From the NCBI GenBank assembly GCA_907165275.2, contig OU015662.1, positions 1,619,501-1,683,500 of the forward strand: DNA of 64,000 bases. Reading direction: 5' to 3'. Position 1 is the first letter of the stretch; every line of letters begins with the position of its first letter. Origin of the DNA: Zygaena filipendulae. Lineage: Eukaryota > Arthropoda > Insecta > Lepidoptera > Zygaenidae. The notes under the pieces were generated by a model. The model was not told the origin of the DNA. It saw only the letters and a program-made list of their open reading frames with translations, and made no database searches. Below, piece by piece: positions 16,313 to 36,904 of the stretch. The position numbers and the translations under genes were made by a program.

Positions 16313-17897
16313 TTAGGCATAATTATCATAAACAATTGCTCTATAAAAAAGATAAACTAGAGTAGGCACTATGATTCCAGTTCCTATGGCAACAATAAAA
16401 ACAGTTAAGAATGTGACGAAATCTTCGTCTTGATTCAGATACTGTGCCAACATTTGAATAAGATTCCTCGCTATATGATGTCCATCTGTACCATAACATG
16501 GCATAACATTTAGAAATGCTATGCCCATTGAAAACATAAACACATACCGTAGGAACTTCTCAAACTGGACAGGGGAGAAATGTGAAAGTAAAGATATTCT
16601 TGGGAAATATTGGTCTATGAATACTGTTTGATGTAAATCATATGGCAGTCCCAAGTAAAGGACAGGATTATTTGTTTCTCGTTCTATAATTATGAGATAT
16701 GTGTGGTTGGATAGAGATGGCTTTAAACAGTGTTGATTTCTTGGGCATGTGTATCCCCCTGCTTCATTACATTTGATAAATTCCTCCTTTACCATATCTC
16801 TGGGCCGTAGACATGAATACTGATTTGGTAATGCTGAATCAGGAGCTACTTTGGGTTCCATGTATTCAAAGCAAAAACTAAATATATCATCCTTCCTACA
16901 ACATTCCACTGTTTCAGATCCTATTGTTTCCATGGCCATTTCATCATTTTCCGCAACATATTCAGAACTAGTACATATTCCAAAACGATCATAGGCCTTG
17001 TGTAGACAGAACAGCCAATCATTGAGATTTTTTATTTGACAACCATTGACAGCAGTAACAACATCGTTCTCTTTGAGGCCTCTTACATGTTTTAATGGTG
17101 AAGTATCAGTAAAACCTGTTATTCTCACTCCTAATTCAGTTTCATAAGCTACACTAAATAAAATAGGTGTAGAGAAATATAATAGCAATGCAACAAAAGC
17201 AGTTGCAATATTGTGCCACACACCAGCACAGTAAATTTTCAGCCTTTTCATCCTAGATAAGCTATTTAAATGCTCTGTATTAAGATGTACAAATGCCACA
17301 GGTATTATAGTAAACACATACAATCCTATGACAATTAACTGAACATCATCCTGAGCAGCTGCCATTGCATGACCTAACTCATGAATCACACTACTAAGCC
17401 CAATTGAGAGGAAGTACATCCAAAACTCTGACGTTGGTATATTGACTCCAGGTAACATTGCTTTCACTTCTGGAACATTAACAAATTCAATTGGTTGATA
17501 GAAATATTTGAATATGAACGAAACTAAAGTCCACATAGCGAATGGTAAGAAGATTAACACAGTGAAATAGTAGCCGACTGAGAACCATCTCCAAAGAAAA
17601 CGAGTGCAGTTTTTACTCCATCTATAAATGCATCTGTTGAACACTGTTGTCTTCCAGGAAAAGTTCAGTATTCCCACTTTCAATCCCGTGCCTTCTAGGA
17701 ATGCGAAGTAAGGGTAATGCATACAACTCTGAAAAAAACATAAAAACTAGGTAATACCAATTTAGAAAATGTAATAAATACATTTCCAGTATCTACTGGA
17801 AATGTGAAAATGGTATAGGTACCTTAAAGAAGGAATCAAAAAACCATATTGCAATATAAAATGTTAAAACGAAGTAACACAGTACAACGAACGACAT
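16313..17897 (-). CDS. S2P: Site-2 protease (membrane-bound transcription factor peptidase S2P)
   Basis: Two exons: 17823-17897 (25 codons, MSFVVLCYFVLTFYIAIWFF...) and 16313-17728, phase 0, with donor aag|gtacc and acceptor tttttttcag. The product is 496 residues. The zinc metalloprotease motif HELGH is at residues 141-145 in a hydrophobic segment. The third metal ligand lies in NVMPCYGTDGHH (Asp about 440), matching the LDG motif of the family. Between them are a PDZ-like segment (about 225-265) and a Cys-rich luminal stretch (about 277-358). The opening 'FFDSFFKSC' and 'TTVFNRCIYRW' match the N-terminal region of animal MBTPS2. The enzyme sits in the Golgi/ER membrane and makes the second, intramembrane cut that frees SREBP and ATF6/CREB3-type factors. 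Start chosen because exon 1 supplies the first membrane helix. The long Ser-rich loop of the human protein is absent. Confidence 0.97.
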
Positions 17898-18544: not shown

Positions 18545-18823
18545 ATGAGTTGTACAGAAAATGATAATGGACCTTTTGTGGTATTCTTCTTGCCGGCTCT
18601 CGTTGGCTGCTTGACGATACTCCTGGCGCGGCGCTGGGCGAACTCTCAAGTCAGCAGTACATCGTCCACTGCCGTCTCACGGAGACGAAAAATCATCAAA
18701 GACCCCTTGGTGAAGCGACCTTTACCACCGATAGCTTGTAAAATGACGCCGCTTGGATCAAAAAAGCCGACTGGGATCGCCAAAAAAGTACAAAACCTTC
18801 CACGAACGATCGTGTATCGGTAG
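18545..18823 (+). CDS. Unrecognised 92-codon reading frame with one membrane helix, upstream of TMEM39
   Basis: ATG 18545 opens MSCTENDNG, then a hydrophobic stretch (FVVFFLPALVGCLTILLA) followed by RR, a Ser-rich part and a basic tail ending RTIVYR at TAG 18821. It is in the same frame as the first recognisable TMEM39 exon, and an acceptor (ttcttctag|ggc) lies at 18856. It could therefore be the true 5' exon of TMEM39 if spliced from an internal phase-0 donor such as ttg|gtgaag at 18710. It could also be an upstream or independent small protein. TMEM39 proteins I remember lack a membrane helix at this place. Confidence 0.35.
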   Translation: MSCTENDNGPFVVFFLPALVGCLTILLARRWANSQVSSTSSTAVSRRRKIIKDPLVKRPLPPIACKMTPLGSKKPTGIAKKVQNLPRTIVYR

Positions 18824-18952
18824 TTTACACCATATTTATTTCGAAATTTCTTCTAGGGCACTCTCCAAATCACGGATGAAGACGCGCCCGGCGGTGGGAA
18901 GCGTGTGGGTCGACCGATACGCCTCTCACCGCCTACAAGTAACGGAATAGCC

Positions 18953-21900
18953 ATGACAGCTGATGTTAAAATAACAGATGGGCCTATGCCTCCAAAGCAT
19001 ATCCCATTTCCGTACATCCCACAAGACGGTGAACTGTTGTTTGAAGTGATGACATTTGTATTCACAATAGTTGCCACTGGCCTGCAGTTTCTGAATCTGT
19101 ATAGGACTGCATGGTGGTTGCCACAGTCATACACAAATCAAGCTATGGTAACTATAATTTTAATTTGTATTTTAGTTACCAAGTAGATCCATGATACAAA
19201 TAGTAAAGTAAGGCAAACTATGTATCTAAAAAGAGAACTATGGACAGTTATTACTGTTGTAGCTATTATTATACAAGCTATCCCCTCACGGTTTCACCCG
19301 CGGTAATTTCAGAGTTCCCAATGGGGATTCCATGATAAAATATAGATATAAACCTTCCTCATGAATTTCTCTATCTATTGGTGAAAACTGCATGAATCTG
19401 TTGTGTAGTTTTAAAGATCTAAGCATACATAAGGACACACAGACTTTGTTTTATACTATGTAGTGATTATTCATTGTCTTAACATGTCAATGACCTTATG
19501 ATTGTAAATGGTAGTAGTATAATAGATACATTGATACATTGTGGCATTTCCCTTCAGGATGATAATAAATTGAAACAATTAAATAATTTATTTGGTAAAC
19601 ATATTATGTATGTAGAATTTGAAGCTGTGCACTTCACACTTGGTGATTGTTCAGACTCCAGTTATACATACCATTGTGTGTGTATGTTTGTATGTGCGTG
19701 TTTATGTGTGTTACTAGGTGAGTTTATTTTTTTTAATAGGTATTAAACTAGATAGTTCTGTTGAATAATAATCCATAAAGTATGTCACACTAAGTTTGTG
19801 ATTTTTTGACCCCTCCTCCATTCTTGTCCCAGTTGGTTACAATTGTGAGACCCCCTCCATAGAGTGACGTCACATATTTTGCAATTTTACATCTAGATAT
19901 TATTAAATCAGAATAGCAGTTCCCACAAAACAATTTGAACCTTAGTTCACCAACAAAACAATTTAAACCTTATTTTTATATAAAATAGACTTGGAAATAT
20001 TTTTAAGGTTTTCATTAATAGTTCAAATTTCGCATTTACACTTGGATGTAAAAAAATTTAAAATGCGATCCCTTCTCACACAATATCACACTTCGTCGAT
20101 CCCCTCCCTTCCCCTTAATGTGTGATATACTTAACGCATGGTCCCTATCTAATAGGAATGGAAATCTATGAACTCTGCCAACCCTAGTGAGAGTTGGTTG
20201 TGAGCTTATAGAAATGTATGTACATTCCTATAAGCTAATTTAGTTTTATAAATAAATACATGTTGTGCTTTGCAATTCCAATAAGTATTAAAGTATTTGA
20301 TAAACACTACTAAAAACACTACTAAAACGTAGTGCTTAATTATTTAATATAAAGATCTCATTTTAAAAATAACAAAAATTAATTAATTACGTACCTACCT
20401 ATCTACTGAAATTTTGAAAAAAATATTCACTCGATTTTTTTTTATCTTTTCAGAATTTCTATCTAATAGACCCACACTTAGTAGCTTTCATAGTGACCAT
20501 ATTATCGCGGAGACTGTTGCTTTCTCTAAGCTTGATGGTGCTCAGATGTGTTGTGGCACCTAAGTTGATGCCTCATGCGACAGCTGCTGCAAGGTGATAA
20601 AATTATAATTTGGTTTTTGCTGACATCAAAACTAATATTACTGAATGCTATTCCTTTTTTAAGAAAAGTCCGCCAAAAAAGACGAAAAAACGGACGAGGT
20701 TCTCAATTCGACGCGTTACATATGTATATTTTATTTACTAATATTTTTTTCAATATTATATCTTTGCAGAATGTTCATATTTGGTGTGGTTCTGGGTTCG
20801 CTGGCGTGGTGCACCTATTTCATAATGCTCAAATATCCACTCACCAAGATGTTCTATCTGTGTTATCCGTGAGTACAGTGAATTAGTGCAGTTCATAGCA
20901 TAGAAAAATACTGACGTCACGTCGTCACGCGAAATTTCGACACAAATCACAATGTATCGCCGTTATTTCGGCTGCTCTACGGAAAAACAAAGCAGCTGTA
21001 ACTTTTTGCTCCACCTGTATTTATTCAGCTGCAATAGGGTATTTTATGATAGATTTCGAAAAAAGTAAACGAGAAACGTCACTAATTAATTATTTAATTA
21101 TTTTTTAAATTTATACATAAAAATGCAATGTAAATTTTATAATTCAGTTTCTAAAACCCTGCTGTTTAATCTGTTTTAAAACGCCATTCGCCACTGGTGA
21201 CGTCACTCCGTTAGTAAACAATCTAGGGTGTGTTCTGATATAACGGTATAACGGCAATTTAGTATACTGCATACTGCGAAGTCGTTCGTTGAACAGTGCT
21301 TGCGATGTATATTGAAACACATTCTTCGCAGTCTCTTTCGCATCTCTTTCATTTCAGTCGTATTGTTAACTAACGGAGTGATGTCACGAGCTGAAAGCAT
21401 GGCAGCTAGCGTTTCCGCACGAAAATTCAAAATAAAAAATTAAAAAAACATTCAAGGCAGTTTTCAGTTTTATAAAATTGAAATAAAAATTCCATTGGTT
21501 CATTACGATCTCAGGATTAATTTTAAATAGTTTTCAAAAAAGGTGTAATACCCTATTACTTAGTTTTACCACTGGGCAGCCAAATTGCCATTCCAAAGCC
21601 CTCTCGGCAGAGCATACAAGAGATATCATATGTCTACACATTTATATTAGTCACTCACTGTTTATGTTTGTTTCTTTTTCTTGTGTGTTGTGCTGAAATA
21701 AAAGTATTTCCTTTCTTTCTTTCTTTAAATTCTTTTTGATTACATATTATTGTTTCTGATGCTGAATAATATGTAATGGGGATGTGGACTACTTTTGAAA
21801 ATCTAAATTGTAATTATTCCATCAGTTAGAAAATAAAAAAAGTGTTTTTGCTTTTTCAAATAAATTTAAATAAACAGAGATAAAGCGTATTAAAGTCGTC

Positions 21901-24900
21901 GATAAAGGGTCGTGACGTCACTAACCGTTAAAACCGCCATACAAACTGTCAGAATAGTGACGTCACGCGAAATTTCAACTCAATATATCGCCGTTATTTT
22001 TTGATTACGTAAAAACAGAAAAAATACGTGTCCAATATGTTGTTAAATACGGACTGAGATATAAAAATGAGTCAACATGCCCATTGTGCACTGTGTGTTG
22101 TGCGTGTGCAGCGCGCTGGTGTACCTGGCGCTGTTCGGCGCGCGCCTGGCGCCGCTGCTGGGCGCGGGCGCGGGTGCGGGCGGGGGCGCGGGCGAGGCGC
22201 GGCCGCCGCTGCACTGCTGCGCGCCCGAGCCGCGCCACGCGCGCGCCGAGGTGGACGCGCTGCGGGACGACTTCAACGCGCGCCTCAAGCGCATCATATT
22301 CGACTCGGTGGTCGGCGCCTACTACTCCAGTCTGGTGCCGTGCTGTTTCGCACAGGTCGGTGCCACTGTACCTATAACATGATAACTTGTGCTTGTGTAT
22401 TTGTATGTGTACATGTATGGGTGTGAGTATGTATGTATGTATGTATGAATGTGTGTGTATGTATGTATACGTATGTATGTATTCGTGTATGTATTTCAAT
22501 GACAGTGAAGCCATTTTGTGACGCGACTGTATTGCGGCCCTGTCGGAAGACCAGCGCCTCATTAAGTTCTGCCCCACAGACATAATGAAGCATTTATGCT
22601 GAGACAATGACCGATTGGCATACAGCACACCCTTCTATTTCCTTCACAATATTTTTTAAAATATCTATTTTTACTGTTTCTTATTTTGTACCTTTTATGT
22701 GGGGACCAATAAACTCATTTCGTCTTCTTTCTTCTTCTTCTAATTCTGATACTAGCTGTAGGAGGAGCACGAATTTTTTCGCACTCATCCTTTCGATATC
22801 GAGCGTTTTTTTTTGTATGGAAAATGAACAGCGCCATCTATCCAGTGTCGTTCATTTTCCATACAAAAAAACGCTTTGACATTACGACGGTATCGACTGA
22901 CGAGAGCGAAAAAATTCGTGCTCCGGTACTGTTCCCTCTTTACGTTTACACCTTCGGGAATCTAGGGATGAATTATGTACCCTGTTTCCTTTTCTGTACC
23001 ACGGTGTGTATGTTAAATTTCATGATGATCGATTGATTTAGAATTTCGCTAATGTTTGTTTGTTTTGACGTATAAAATCGATTGCTTATATTTATATACA
23101 TTTGAGAATAGGGTATTTTACACCTTTTTTTGAGAACTTTATAATTAATCCTGAGATCGTATTGACCCAGTGGAATTTTTATTTATATTTTATAAAACCG
23201 AAGAATGCTTTTAAAAACGATTTGTTTATTTATGGTTTTGAATTTTCGCGCGGTAACGCTAGCCGCCATGCTTTCAGTTCGTGACGTCAATCCTTTGGTA
23301 AACAATACGACTGCGAAAGAATCGTGTGTTCCGATATACACAGCGAGCACTGTTCAGATGGTATAGCTGTTCTATAAATAAACGATTTTGATGTTATACC
23401 TTACCTTCGCAGTGCATATCGAAACACACCCTAGATTGTTTACTAACGGAGTGACGTCACCAATATGGCGTTTTAGACATTGGAAAAACAGATTAAAAAG
23501 ATGATTTTAAAAATTTAATTATAAAATTAACACTTTATTTTTATGAATACATATAGACGTTTCTCGTTTATTTTTTTCGAAATCTATCTTATACATGCAT
23601 ATGTATATTTATTTATTGATGCATTATGTATATTTTCTTGCATGGTGTAAAACACCCTATTTAACTTGAGTCTTGAATTACCTTAGGTACTCTAAAAATC
23701 TAAATTATAAGATTTTTTTTCTTGTGCATCTGTAACTGACTTCATTGCTGCCAATCATTTCCGCCGTTTCGGGTGGTCCGGTTTGATCCGTTCGTGTGCC
23801 GCAAGTCAGTGTGACAGTGGGTTCCCCGCGCGTGTTGTGCCCCGCAGTCGTACCTGTACTACGACGTGTACGGCGCGTCGCAGCAGGTGGCGTTCGTGTG
23901 CGGCGGGCTGTGCGGCCGGTACGCGAGCCAGCTGCTGTCCGCCGCGCACTGCGACGTGCCGCACCGCGCCGCGCGCCACCTGGGCCGCTGGCGCCGCGAG
24001 CCCGGCGGGGCGCCGCCCGGGGCCGACCCGCCGCCGCCCTGGGCGGACGGGCGCGCGTGGCCGCGGGGCGCGCGCGTGCAGCACGCGGGCGCGGTGTACG
24101 TGTGCGCCGCGGCCGGGGTCGCGGTGCCGGGCGACCACCGGCACGACAGGTTCTATGTGAGTGGGGGGCCGGGGGGGACACGGCGCGGGGCGCGCGCGTG
24201 CAGCACGCGGGCGCGGTGTACGTGTGCGCCGCGGCCGGGGTCGCGGTGCCGGGCGACCACCGGCACGACAGGTTCTATGTGAGTGGGGGCCGGGGGGGAC
24301 ACGGCGCGGGGCGCGCGCGTGCAGCACGCGGGCGCGGTGTACGTGTGCGCCGCGGCCGGGGTCGCGGTGCCGGGCGACCACCGGCACGACAGGTTCTATG
24401 TGAGTGGGGGCCGGGGGGGACACGGCGCGGGGCGCGCGCGTGCAGCACGCGGGCGCGGTGTACGTGTGCGCCGCGGTCGGGGTCGCGGGGCCGGGCGACC
24501 ACCGGCACGACAGGTTCTATGTGAGTGGGGGGCCGGGGGGGACACGGCGCGGGGCGCGCGCGTGCAGCACGCGGGCGCGGTGTACGTGTGCGCCGCGGCC
24601 GGGGTCGCGGTGCCGGGCGACCACCGGCACGACAGGTTCTATGTGAGTGGGGGCCGGGGGGGACACGGCGCGGGGCGCGCGCGTGCAGCACGCGGGCGCG
24701 GTGTACGTGTGCGCCGCGGCCGGGGTCGCGGTGCCGGGCGACCACCGGCACGACAGGTTCTATGTGAGTGGGGGGCCGGGGGGGACACGGCGCGGGGCGC
24801 GCGCGTGCAGCACGCGGGCGCGGTGTACGTGTGCGCCGCGGCCGGGGTCGCGGTGCCGGGCGACCACCGGCACGACAGGTTCTATGTGAGTGGGGGGCCG

Positions 24901-26709
24901 GGGGGGACACGGCGCGGGGGGCGCGCGTGCAGCACGCGGGCGCGGTGTACGTGTGCGCCGCGGCCGGGGTCGCGGTGCCGGGCGACCACCGGCACGACAG
25001 GTTCTATGTGAGTGGGGGGCCGGGGGGGACACGGCGCGGGGGGCGCGCGTGCAGCACGCGGGCGCGGTGTACGTGTGCGCCGCGGCCGGGGTCGCGGTGC
25101 CGGGCGACCACCGGCACGACAGGTTCTATGTGAGTGGGGGGCCGGGGGGGACACGGCGCGGGGCGCGCGCGTGCAGCACGCGGGCGCGGTGTACGTGTGC
25201 GCCGCGGCCGGGGTCGCGGTGCCGGGCGACCACCGGCACGACAGGTTCTATGTGAGTGGGGGCCGGGGGGGACACGGCGCGGGGCGCGCGCGTGCAGCAC
25301 GCGGGCGCAGTGTACGTGTGCGCCGCGGCCGGGGTCGCGGTGCCGGGCGACCACCGGCACGACAGGTTCTATGTGAGTGGGGGGCCGGGGGGGACACGGC
25401 GCGGGGCGCGCGCGTGCAGCACGCGGGCGCGGTGTACGTGTGCGCCGCGGCCGGGGTCGCGGTGCCGGGCGACCACCGGCACGACAGGTTCTATGTGAGT
25501 GGGGGGCCGGGGGGGACACGGCGCGGGGCGCGCGCGTGCAGCACGCGGGCGCGGTGTACGTGTGCGCCGCGGCCGGGGTCGCGGTGCCGGGCGACCACCG
25601 GCACGACAGGTTCTATGTGAGTGGGGGGCCGGGGGGGACACGGCGCGGGGGGCGCGCGTGCAGCACGCGGGCGCGGTGTACGTGTGCGCCGGGGTCGCGG
25701 TGCCGGGCGACCACCGGCACGACAGGTTCTATGTGAGTGGGGGGCCGGGGGGGACACGGCGCGGGGCGCGCGCGTGCAGCACGCGGGCGCGGTGTACGTG
25801 TGCGCCGCGGCCGGGGTCGCGGTGCCGGGCGACCACCGGCACGACAGGTTCTATGTGAGTGGGGGCCGGGGGGGACACGGCGCGGGGCGCGCGCGTGCAG
25901 CACGCGGGCGCGGTGTACGTGTGCGCCGCGGCCGGGGTCGCGGTGCCGGGCGACCACCGGCACGACAGGTTCTATGTGAGTGGGGGGCCGGGGGAGACAC
26001 GGCGCGGGGCGCGCGCGTGCAGCACGCGGGCGCGGTGTACGTGTGCGCCGCGGCCGGGGTCGCGGTGCCGGGCGACCACCGGCACGACAGGTTCTATGTG
26101 AGTGGGGGGCCGGGGGGGACACGGCGCGGGGCGCGCGCGTGCAGCACGCGGGCGCGGTGTACGTGTGCGCCGCGGCCGGGGTCGCGGTGCCGGGCGACCA
26201 CCGGCACGACAGGTTCTATGTGAGTGGGGGGCCGGGGGGGCGCTGCGCGGGGGGCTTGTGCGTACTCTCCATAAACTACCTATCTGCCAAAATTCAGCTT
26301 TACAGATCGCATAATTTTTTTTATTGTTGCTTTTATTTGTACTTATTTGAGATGAGAATCGAATACTGAACCGCGCTCCTCCAACACATCCATCAATTGG
26401 ACCCCTTGTATAATACCATAGATATTAATCTCTGCTCTCTGTCCACAGGCGGTGTTCGCGGACCCGTCGTCGCTGCTGTGCGCGCAGGTGTGCCTCCAGC
26501 TGGCGCTGGTGGTGGTCCAGCTCTGCGTGCTGTTCAGCTCGATGCCGTGGCACAACTTCCTGTCGACCCTCATACTCCTGTTCGTGAACTACTACACGCT
26601 GTTCAAGATGGTGCGCGACTACCTCGTCGCGTGGAAGGTGTACCGCGCCGAGCAGATGATAAACGAGCGGAACAACGCCGCAGCGGCCGCGCCCGTCGGC
26701 TGCAACTGA
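18953..26709 (+). CDS. TMEM39: Transmembrane protein 39 (TMEM39A/B family), six exons
   Basis: Exons: 18953-19147, 20454-20593, 20770-20868, 22112-22355, 23848-24156, 26449-26709; all junctions GT-AG and phase-consistent; 415 residues from Met 18953. Family matches: IPQDGELLFEV with LNLYRTAWWLP, NFYLIDPHLVAFIVTIL, EVDALRDDFNARLKRIIF, AARHLGRW, WPRGARVQH, VPGDHRHDRFY, and a last exon with two membrane helices ending NYYTLFKMVRDY. This is a multi-pass ER protein; in mammals it supports COPII export of the phosphatase SAC1 and restrains autophagy, and in worms collagen secretion. Oddities: the 3' end of exon 5 with its donor is repeated in tandem 18 times; exons 4-6 are extremely GC-rich while exons 1-3 are AT-rich; the cytoplasmic loop before EVDAL is short and Gly/Ala-rich. 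The start is uncertain: frame is open back to an acceptor at 18856. AATAAA at 26964. Confidence 0.9.
19148..20453 (+). other. TMEM39 intron 1
   Basis: 1,306 bp. Holds a reverse Helitron-type relic (about 19265-19450) and a TGACGTCA site at about 19865. The acceptor is preceded by a good pyrimidine tract (tttttttatcttttcag). No other gene is seen; the frames at 19498-19746 and 20575-20886 are chance or exon shadows. Confidence 0.6.
19265..19450 (-). mobile_element. Helitron-type relic, reverse
   Basis: Diverged copy: 'cacggtttcacccgcggtaa' hairpin arms, then 'tttcagagttccca'. It is related to 59453-59658 by its inner sequence. Confidence 0.5.
20898..20965. mobile_element. MITE family A fragment
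   Basis: Only the middle is left: 'ctgacgtcacg', 'cacgcgaaatttcgac' and 'tatcgccgttattt'. It lies in TMEM39 intron 3. Confidence 0.5.
21032..21558 (-). mobile_element. MITE family B, copy 1
   Basis: Ends 'aatagggtattttat' and 'gtaataccctatt' are terminal inverted repeats. Inside, 'gacgtcactccgttagtaaa' and 'gttaactaacggagtgatg' form a second inverted pair, so the element is palindromic at two levels. It lies in TMEM39 intron 3, upstream of exon 4. It is inverted relative to copy 2 (23107-23661). Confidence 0.8.
21776..22085 (+). mobile_element. MITE family A, copy 3, abutting the TMEM39 exon 4 acceptor
   Basis: Begins 'aatggggatgtggacta' and ends 'gagtcaacatgcccatt'. It has two CRE palindromes (about 21912 and 21957). 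Its right end is only 26 bp before exon 4 (22112), so the usual branch-point zone of that acceptor lies inside or at the edge of the MITE. Confidence 0.8.
22402..22500 (+). repeat. (TATG)n / (TGTA)n microsatellite
   Basis: Imperfect tetranucleotide run in TMEM39 intron 4, densest at 22428-22480. The minus-strand open frame across it encodes only a His/Thr/Ile repeat and is not a gene. Confidence 0.85.
22764..22924. mobile_element. Hairpin MITE, family H
   Basis: Left 'ggagcacgaattttttcgc' and right 'gcgaaaaaattcgtgctcc' are perfect 19-bp inverted repeats. The inner 'gtatggaaaatgaa' / 'ttcattttccatac' also pair. The total is about 161 bp, a near-complete hairpin, within TMEM39 intron 4. Confidence 0.8.
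23107..23661 (+). mobile_element. MITE family B, copy 2
   Basis: Ends 'aatagggtattttacacc' and 'gtaaaacaccctatt'. The interior is an inverted match to 21032-21558 (for example 'attgtttactaacggagtg'). It lies in TMEM39 intron 4, downstream of exon 4, so exon 4 is flanked by inverted copies. Confidence 0.8.
24067..26240 (+). repeat. 18-copy tandem array of the TMEM39 exon 5 end plus splice donor
   Basis: The junction 'aggttctat|gtgagtgggg' occurs 18 times: at 24156/24157, then 17 more times at steps of 122, 121, 121, 122, 121, 122, 122, 122, 122, 121, 122, 122, 116, 122, 121, 122 and 122 bp. Each unit holds the last 75-90 nt of exon 5 (coding AVYVCAAAGVAVPGDHRHD), the donor GTGAGT, and about 45 bp of G-rich intron start. 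Units are almost identical; differences are the length of one G run, a few point changes, and one 6-bp loss (unit ending 25736). The first copy belongs to the real exon and the others are in intron 5. Each unit also has 'gcgtgcag', a poor acceptor-like site, 75 nt (25 codons) before its donor. Confidence 0.95.
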
Positions 26710-36316: not shown

Positions 36317-36904
36317 TTATACTACTACACAGTACACAGGCCCTACGGGGTTCGCGGTCGCTACGGTCGGACGGGCGGTCGGGAATCGGGGCAGGAAGGC
36401 GGTAGCGGAAGGGGCTGTGTGCTTGAGGTCGGTCGGTGAGTAGGCGTGGGTGAGTATCGTCCCGGGGGCGGCGGGCAGATGCGGCGCAGGGCGTCGGGGC
36501 GCCCTGGCGCAGACTGTCCGTCGTCCGCGGGGCCGGCGTGGCTGTCTGGGTTCGCCCCGGGGCGGCGGGCAGGTGCAGCGTAGGGCGTCGAGGCGCCCTG
36601 GCGCAAACTGTCCGTCACCGTCGGAGCTGGTGCGAGTAGCTGAATACCCCTCGGGGCGCGTGTAGGTGAGTGGTATCCCCCCGGGGTGGCGGCCGGGCGC
36701 AGCGTAGGGTGCCGGGGCTCCCTGGCGCAAACCGTCCGTCGCCGTCGGGGCGTGTGTAGGTGAGATAATTCCCGCGGGGCGGCGGCCGGGTGCAGCGTAG
36801 GGTGCCGGGGCCCCCTGGCGCAAACCGTCCGTCACCGTCGGGGCGTGTGTGGGTGTTGTTTTGGACGGGTCTGTGGGGTCTGGACGGAAGGAAGTTGTCG
36901 CCAT
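36317..36904 (-). CDS. GC-rich repeat-coded Pro/Thr/Ala-rich reading frame, doubtful gene
   Basis: ATG 36904 opens MATTSFRPDPTDPSK followed by imperfect repeats of a unit containing TDGLRQGAPAPYAAPGR, then Arg/Pro-rich sequence to a stop at 36317 (195 codons). The DNA is a minisatellite: the word 'ctggcgca(a/g)actgtccgtc' recurs at about 36504, 36598, 36722 and 36815. Low-complexity GC-rich DNA often keeps long frames open by chance, and other frames are open here too. No domain or splice context is seen. It may be a repeat-derived frame from a transposon. Confidence 0.2.
   Translation of the reverse strand: MATTSFRPDPTDPSKTTPTHAPTVTDGLRQGAPAPYAAPGRRPAGIISPTHAPTATDGLRQGAPAPYAAPGRHPGGIPLTYTRPEGYSATRTSSDGDGQFAPGRLDALRCTCPPPRGEPRQPRRPRGRRTVCARAPRRPAPHLPAAPGTILTHAYSPTDLKHTAPSATAFLPRFPTARPTVATANPVGPVYCVVV
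36440..36850. repeat. GC-rich minisatellite, about four units
   Basis: Units of roughly 94, 124 and 93 bp share 'ggcgggcaggtgcagcgtag' and 'gcaaaccgtccgtc' words. GC content is far above the flanks. Confidence 0.75.

What the first reader, a model, noticed from the sequence alone, without database searches (positions are those of the whole stretch)
24067..26240. An exon end and its 5' splice site amplified 18-fold inside TMEM39
The sequence shows 18 near-identical copies of the last coding part of TMEM39 exon 5 with GTGAGT and the first about 45 intron bases, spaced 121/122 bp. The splicing machinery meets 18 equivalent donors before the next acceptor at 26448. By my reading, only the first donor keeps frame with exon 6: reading on to the second shifts frame and meets TGA at 24280-24282. 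So donor choice could decide between functional protein and a decay-prone transcript. The near identity of units points to recent expansion or ongoing homogenisation.
Basis: partly seen in the sequence, partly recalled or inferred. Interest (0 to 1): 0.85.

Follow-up and report, generated by a model that had tools for sequence, protein, structure and literature searches.

The report
Exon end and donor repeated 18-fold
In a moth or butterfly gene for a membrane protein, the end of one exon together with the signal that starts the next intron is repeated 18 times head to tail; it is a minisatellite of a kind already known from two human genes, and a neat natural test of how cells choose among identical splice sites.

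Summary
Bases 24062-26252 hold 18.1 head-to-tail copies of a 121/122-bp unit (98% matches), with 18 identical TTCTAT|GTGAGT donors. The gene is TMEM39 of a lepidopteran. Donor 1 alone gives the conserved protein; donor 2 shifts frame and stops in the last exon; donors 3-18 carry the TGA. Likeliest reading: a young GC-rich minisatellite straddling an exon-intron boundary, donor 1 mostly used, the other 17 copies intronic passengers (inferred). Direct precedents exist: human CBS c.1444_1467+7, 31 bp, 16-21 copies, and the human ABCA7 VNTR, whose second donor accounts for about 2% of transcripts. So it is a new member of a known kind. No RNA, no reads, no second individual and no DNA of relatives could be examined; donor use and copy-number variation are untested.

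The parts
18545..18787 (+). TMEM39 coding exon 1 (by homology)
   Evidence: N-terminus matches relatives read
18857..19147 (+). TMEM39 coding exon 2
20454..20593 (+). TMEM39 coding exon 3
20770..20868 (+). TMEM39 coding exon 4
22112..22355 (+). TMEM39 coding exon 5
23848..24156 (+). TMEM39 coding exon 6 when donor 1 is used (309 nt); its last 95 nt belong to unit 1 of the array
24062..26252 (+). tandem array, 18.1 copies of a 121/122-bp unit (95 nt exon end + 26-27 nt intron start)
24157..24162 (+). donor 1 (GTGAGT), the only one of 18 that gives the conserved protein
24279..24284 (+). donor 2; +122 nt, frameshift, stop at 26585 in exon 7
24280..24282 (+). TGA met by donors 3-18 and by intron retention; overlaps donor 2
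25644..25732 (+). exonic part of unit 14, 89 nt: in-frame 6-nt deletion that makes the 116-nt spacing
26220..26225 (+). donor 18, nearest to the acceptor (intron of 229 nt)
26449..26709 (+). TMEM39 coding exon 7 (last), acceptor CCACAG|GCGGT, stop TGA 26707-26709

Best explanation
A GC-rich minisatellite that straddles the exon 6/intron 6 boundary of TMEM39. A tandem duplication copied the last 95 nt of the exon with the donor and about 27 nt of intron; unequal exchange or slippage then expanded it to 18 copies and may keep them alike (inferred). Each copy brings its own exon end and donor, so if the first donor is used any copy number leaves the protein unchanged, and expansion is close to neutral. 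Donor 1 is probably chosen because it defines a 309-nt exon with the acceptor before 23848 and is transcribed first (inferred). Donors 2-18 are then intronic passengers, with perhaps a few percent leak to donor 2 (by analogy with ABCA7).
For: Array anatomy and 18 identical donors. Donor 1-exon 7 joining gives a Tmp39 family protein (319 bits, E 6.6e-95; 321.5 bits for a shorter model), and the 40 relatives aligned (of 119 found) all run through that point without insertion. The donor-2 product, exon 6 onward, matches only profile positions 256-356 of 422. Unit 1 equals the unit consensus; exonic and intronic parts of the units vary alike (mean pairwise 0.0067 and 0.0054), as expected if most copies are not coding. 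Of 54 AGs in 24151-26240 the best pyrimidine fraction is 0.53, against 0.82 at the exon 7 acceptor. Predicted donor accessibility is much alike: 0.010-0.015 for donors 1-17, 0.006 for donor 18, so position is left to decide. Human CBS and ABCA7 are precedents.
Against: No RNA was seen. A paper on paired donors states that the intron-proximal one is favoured when two are comparable (passage in PMC6002489), which would predict donor 18 and a spoiled mRNA. [quoted passage not shown] the passage says donors, although such a junction holds an acceptor, my remark). The 2% of ABCA7 is measured after decay. The array may be too young for a damaged gene to have decayed, so an intact frame is weak proof that donor 1 works. 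Copy-number variation is not shown.
Confidence: 0.72

Rival explanations
1. The array is a splicing dial: later donors compete, so copy number sets the share of mRNA that makes full TMEM39, the rest being truncated or decayed.
For: 18 identical donors with similar predicted accessibility; donors 3-18 place a stop 117-1937 nt before the junction; intron-proximal donors are said to be favoured among comparable pairs (PMC6002489 passage). In ABCA7 longer arrays go with less expression and with more skipping of the next exon.
Against: In ABCA7 the share of the second donor did not change with VNTR length. Using donor 18 would need a 2372-nt exon (from coordinates). Donor 2 gives a stop in the last exon, so decay is not predicted for the most likely leak product. 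Skipping of the next exon, the ABCA7 effect, is not open here in the same way because exon 7 is the last coding exon.
Confidence: 0.13
2. Assembly artefact: the true copy number is lower, or one.
For: GC 0.79 and long G runs; the G5/G6 difference behind the 121/122 spacing is the sort of homopolymer change that sequencing errors make. No reads were available.
Against: Units 4, 11, 14 and 16 carry private changes and units 8, 9 and 14 share one; no N in the window; the contig is 12.3 Mb and the array 2.2 kb, which a long read could span.
Confidence: 0.08
3. The intronic copies are a reservoir of variant exon ends that unequal exchange can move into the coding position.
For: All 18 copies read in frame when placed at the exon end; 2 of 18 (units 4 and 14) would change the protein.
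Against: 16 of 18 encode the same 31 residues; exonic and intronic parts vary alike, as under drift.
Confidence: 0.04
4. New introns or mini-exons: each unit supplies acceptor and donor, as in intron gain by tandem duplication.
For: Units contain AGGT just before TTCTAT-GTGAGT (first at 24148-24151).
Against: No good pyrimidine tract in the array by a simple measure; the 40 aligned relatives show no extra residues at the joint.
Confidence: 0.03

Closest known systems
Human CBS 31-bp VNTR, c.1444_1467+7(16_21)
   Same: By its name the unit is 24 nt of coding exon end plus 7 nt of intron, so every copy repeats exon end and donor start; 16-21 copies, with 18 the commonest in the first column of the allele table (PMC2630376, passages only).
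   Different: 31-bp instead of 121/122-bp unit, in a human gene, with copy-number polymorphism shown. That the units all hold a usable donor is my reading of the name; the original description (Lievers 2001) is not held.
Human ABCA7 intron 18 VNTR
   Same: 25-bp unit whose first two bases correspond to the donor of exon 18; GC-rich; splicing to the next donor keeps one unit and shifts frame (PMC5954066, passages and sections 21-22).
   Different: Array starts at the donor, so the unit holds no coding exon; about 12-427 copies; the length effect seen is on skipping of the next exon and on expression.
Intron gain by tandem duplication (ATP2A1, fission yeast, potato RdRp)
   Same: Tandem copying across or beside a splice site (PMC4974935, abstract and introduction).
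   Different: There a new intron arises from the copies; here an existing donor is multiplied and no good acceptor is seen.
Competing pseudo-donor, ER-alpha exon 1
   Same: Comparable donors compete (PMC6002489, passages).
   Different: Two non-repeat sites 33 nt apart, not 18 identical ones.

Membership tests
Minisatellite / VNTR | Head-to-tail near-identical units | tested here: met
   18.1 copies, 98% matches. The unit, 121/122 bp, is a little longer than the 15-100 bp given for minisatellites in one abstract listed
Minisatellite / VNTR | Copy number varies between individuals | not testable with these tools
   one assembly only
Exon-boundary donor VNTR (CBS, ABCA7 type) | Repeat unit contains the splice donor | tested here: met
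   18 of 18 units carry TTCTATGTGAGT
Exon-boundary donor VNTR (CBS type) | Unit contains coding exon end | tested here: met
   95 nt of exon 6 per unit, 89 in unit 14
Exon-boundary donor VNTR (CBS, ABCA7 type) | First donor is the canonical one in mRNA | not testable with these tools
   supported only indirectly: donor 1 gives the conserved protein
Intron gain by tandem duplication | Unit supplies a usable acceptor | tested here: inconclusive
   AG is present in the units, but of 54 AGs in 24151-26240 the best pyrimidine fraction is 0.53 against 0.82 for the exon 7 acceptor; a simple measure, no RNA
TMEM39 (Pfam Tmp39, PF10271) | Matches the family profile above its cut-off | tested here: met
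   319 bits, cut-off 28

The most novel reading that the evidence does not exclude
Copy number of the donor array is a heritable dial on TMEM39 output: up to 18 U1 particles can sit on the pre-mRNA and the share of splicing to donors 3-18 sets how much mRNA is spoiled.
Probability: 0.12. Interest if true: 0.7.

Novelty: new member of a known kind. Interest (0 to 1): 0.42.

Why it matters
Eighteen identical donors of like sequence context competing for one acceptor in an intact conserved gene make donor position the main variable. Reading which one is used would tell whether exon definition or the intron-proximal preference wins in vivo, and whether arrays that carry their own exon end are tolerated because they are splice-neutral. 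It also warns gene predictors: models that place the exon end at a later copy would be wrong.

Tried and rejected
Rejected: that the TGA at 24280 marks the donor-2 product (it is spliced out). Rejected: that the 121 and 122 spacings alone decide frame; extensions to donors 3, 5, 7, 10, 12, 15 and 17 are multiples of 3 yet all carry the TGA. Looked for a difference in folding between donors: only a somewhat lower value for donor 18. Looked for a strict G-quadruplex pattern on the + strand (loops up to 7): none; 63 overlapping matches with loops up to 12. Looked for Rfam families in the window at the gathering threshold: none. Looked for solved structures of the 528-aa protein by sequence (E up to 0.001): none. 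Higher-order pattern: units 9-13 and 14-18 share the string g-d-0-0-0 of shared variants, reached by 5431 of 200000 shuffles; the clustering of like neighbours was not unusual (0.47 of 50000 shuffles). Both tests were chosen after seeing the data. Unit 1 is closer to the others (0.0036) than they are to each other (0.0068), which follows from its being the consensus. Paper searches: (20 and 37 and 41 gave nothing; one listed 15 of 63 and 49 listed 8 of 11). Among the titles and abstract starts listed I saw none on this array in a lepidopteran; 'TMEM39A' with 'Lepidoptera' gave no paper. PMC8724738 was opened for passages and gave only references.

Full report
What is there. Tandem Repeats Finder reports one array at 24062-26252, period 122, 18.1 copies, 98% matches. 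TTCTATGTGAGT occurs 18 times in it; the G of the donors lies at 24157, 24279, 24400 and so on to 26220, spaced 122 (11 times), 121 (5) and 116 (1). The unit is the last 95 nt of an exon plus the first 26 or 27 nt of the intron. A search of the whole 366-Mb assembly with window 24060-24310 gave 9 matches, 8 at this locus and one short stretch elsewhere (59 bp, 83%) (counts there are lower bounds).

The gene. Joined exons give a protein of 528 aa that matches Pfam Tmp39 (319 bits, cut-off 28). The protein search listed 119 relatives among the 7996 candidates scored; the best 40 were read. Of these 36 carry an organism name, all Lepidoptera as far as I know the names. Their N-terminus shows that the window's gene has a first coding exon at 18545-18787, so there are 7 coding exons and the array sits at the end of exon 6, before the last coding exon. 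The host is therefore a lepidopteran by inference; no species name is available. In an alignment of the window's protein with those 40, all 40 run through the exon 6/exon 7 joint with no inserted residue; three of them (P0029, P0037, P0040) lack parts of the segment before it. The copied exon part encodes RGARVQHAGAVYVCAAAGVAVPGDHRHDRFY, in the C-terminal part of the family.

What each donor would give. Donor 1: the full protein. Donor 2: +122 nt, frameshift; the TGA at 24280-24282 covers +2 to +4 of donor 2 and leaves with the intron; reading goes on into exon 7 and stops at 26585, a product that is by chance also 528 aa, with a foreign end. The exon-junction rule does not predict decay for a stop in the last exon. 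Donors 3-18 and intron retention: stop at 24280, a 483-aa product; for donors 3-18 the stop lies 117 to 1937 nt before the junction, so decay is plausible. Extensions to donors 3, 5, 7, 10, 12, 15 and 17 are multiples of three but all carry the stop. The acceptor side: of 54 AGs in 24151-26240 the best pyrimidine fraction is 0.53, against 0.82 at the exon 7 acceptor. So the array multiplies donors and, by this simple measure, not acceptors.

Are the donors equal? The 12 nt around each are identical; the G run after GTGAGT is five or six long, and unit 16 has one further change in the intron part. The predicted chance of the 9-mer being unpaired is 0.010-0.015 for donors 1-17 and 0.006 for donor 18. 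Predicted pairing of donor 1 with U1 is -6.6 kcal/mol against -5.0 to -9.6 for the donors of exons 2 to 5, so it is an ordinary donor. Position is the main thing that separates them.

Age and homogeneity. Unit 1 equals the consensus. Changes: unit 4 (two), units 8, 9 and 14 (one shared), unit 11, unit 16, and a 6-nt in-frame loss in unit 14; units 2, 3, 5, 10 and 15 have the shorter G run. Mean pairwise difference is 0.0064 over the compared columns; exon part 0.0067, intron part 0.0054. This fits a young or homogenised array without coding constraint on most copies; it does not tell young from homogenised. The G5/G6 difference could partly be sequencing error. A block of five units may have been doubled (units 9-13 and 14-18; 5431 of 200000 shuffles as good, post hoc).

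How unusual here. In 20 stretches of 10 kb from the same genome (200 kb, one position on each of 20 contigs), 75 repeat rows were found; of the 13 rows with period 30 or more and at least 2.5 copies, none had GC above 0.44. The array has GC 0.79. The sample is small and says nothing of exon boundaries.

Mechanism. Most likely donor 1 is used: it makes a 309-nt exon with the acceptor before 23848, is transcribed first, and is the only one of the 18 that yields the family protein. This step is inferred. In the best-measured relative I found, ABCA7, the 25-bp unit starts with a donor, yet the product of the second donor accounts for 2 +/- 1% of transcripts and did not change with length; transcripts with early stops rose when decay was blocked, so real use may be higher (section 21 of PMC5954066). 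Longer ABCA7 arrays did go with more skipping of the next exon and with less expression. Against donor 1 stands the remark that with two comparable donors the intron-proximal one is favoured, for reasons not known (PMC6002489 passage). The locus is a natural contest between these two rules.

Known kind. The human CBS VNTR c.1444_1467+7(16_21) is by its name the same thing on a smaller scale: 24 nt of exon end and 7 nt of intron repeated 16-21 times (passages of PMC2630376; the original paper is not held). I therefore file this as a new member of a known kind: an exon-boundary, donor-bearing minisatellite, with a longer unit and in an insect. Polymorphism and donor use, features of those human cases, could not be tested.

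Limits. No RNA, no reads, no second individual, no relatives' DNA. The own-genome protein search did not complete.

Noticed in passing
21194-21390 and 23278-23463: Two copies of a hairpin-like element (inverted ends of 29 nt) lie in opposite orientation in introns 4 and 5, flanking exon 5; stretches in and around them are complementary over 98 nt (84%) and 47 nt (96%) and could pair in the pre-mRNA and loop out exon 5.
   Followed up: partly
36461-36855: Degenerate GC-rich repeats of 93-94 bp (about two copies in each of two adjoining rows), with GTGAGT at 36666 inside and at 36436 and 36450 just before; no gene assigned.
   Followed up: no
16313-17746 (minus): A 477-aa reading frame without stops matching Pfam Peptidase_M50, perhaps a site-2 protease gene without introns over this stretch.
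   Followed up: partly
20454-26709: GC of TMEM39 exons jumps from 0.44 and 0.42 in exons 3-4 to 0.76 and 0.80 in exons 5-6 and 0.64 in exon 7.
   Followed up: no
G000:C26:4158796-4158854: A 59-bp stretch 83% like part of the array unit.
   Followed up: no
proteins P0029, P0037, P0040: TMEM39 proteins of three other Lepidoptera lack parts of the segment that is amplified here; may be gene-model errors in a GC-rich exon, or real differences.
   Followed up: no
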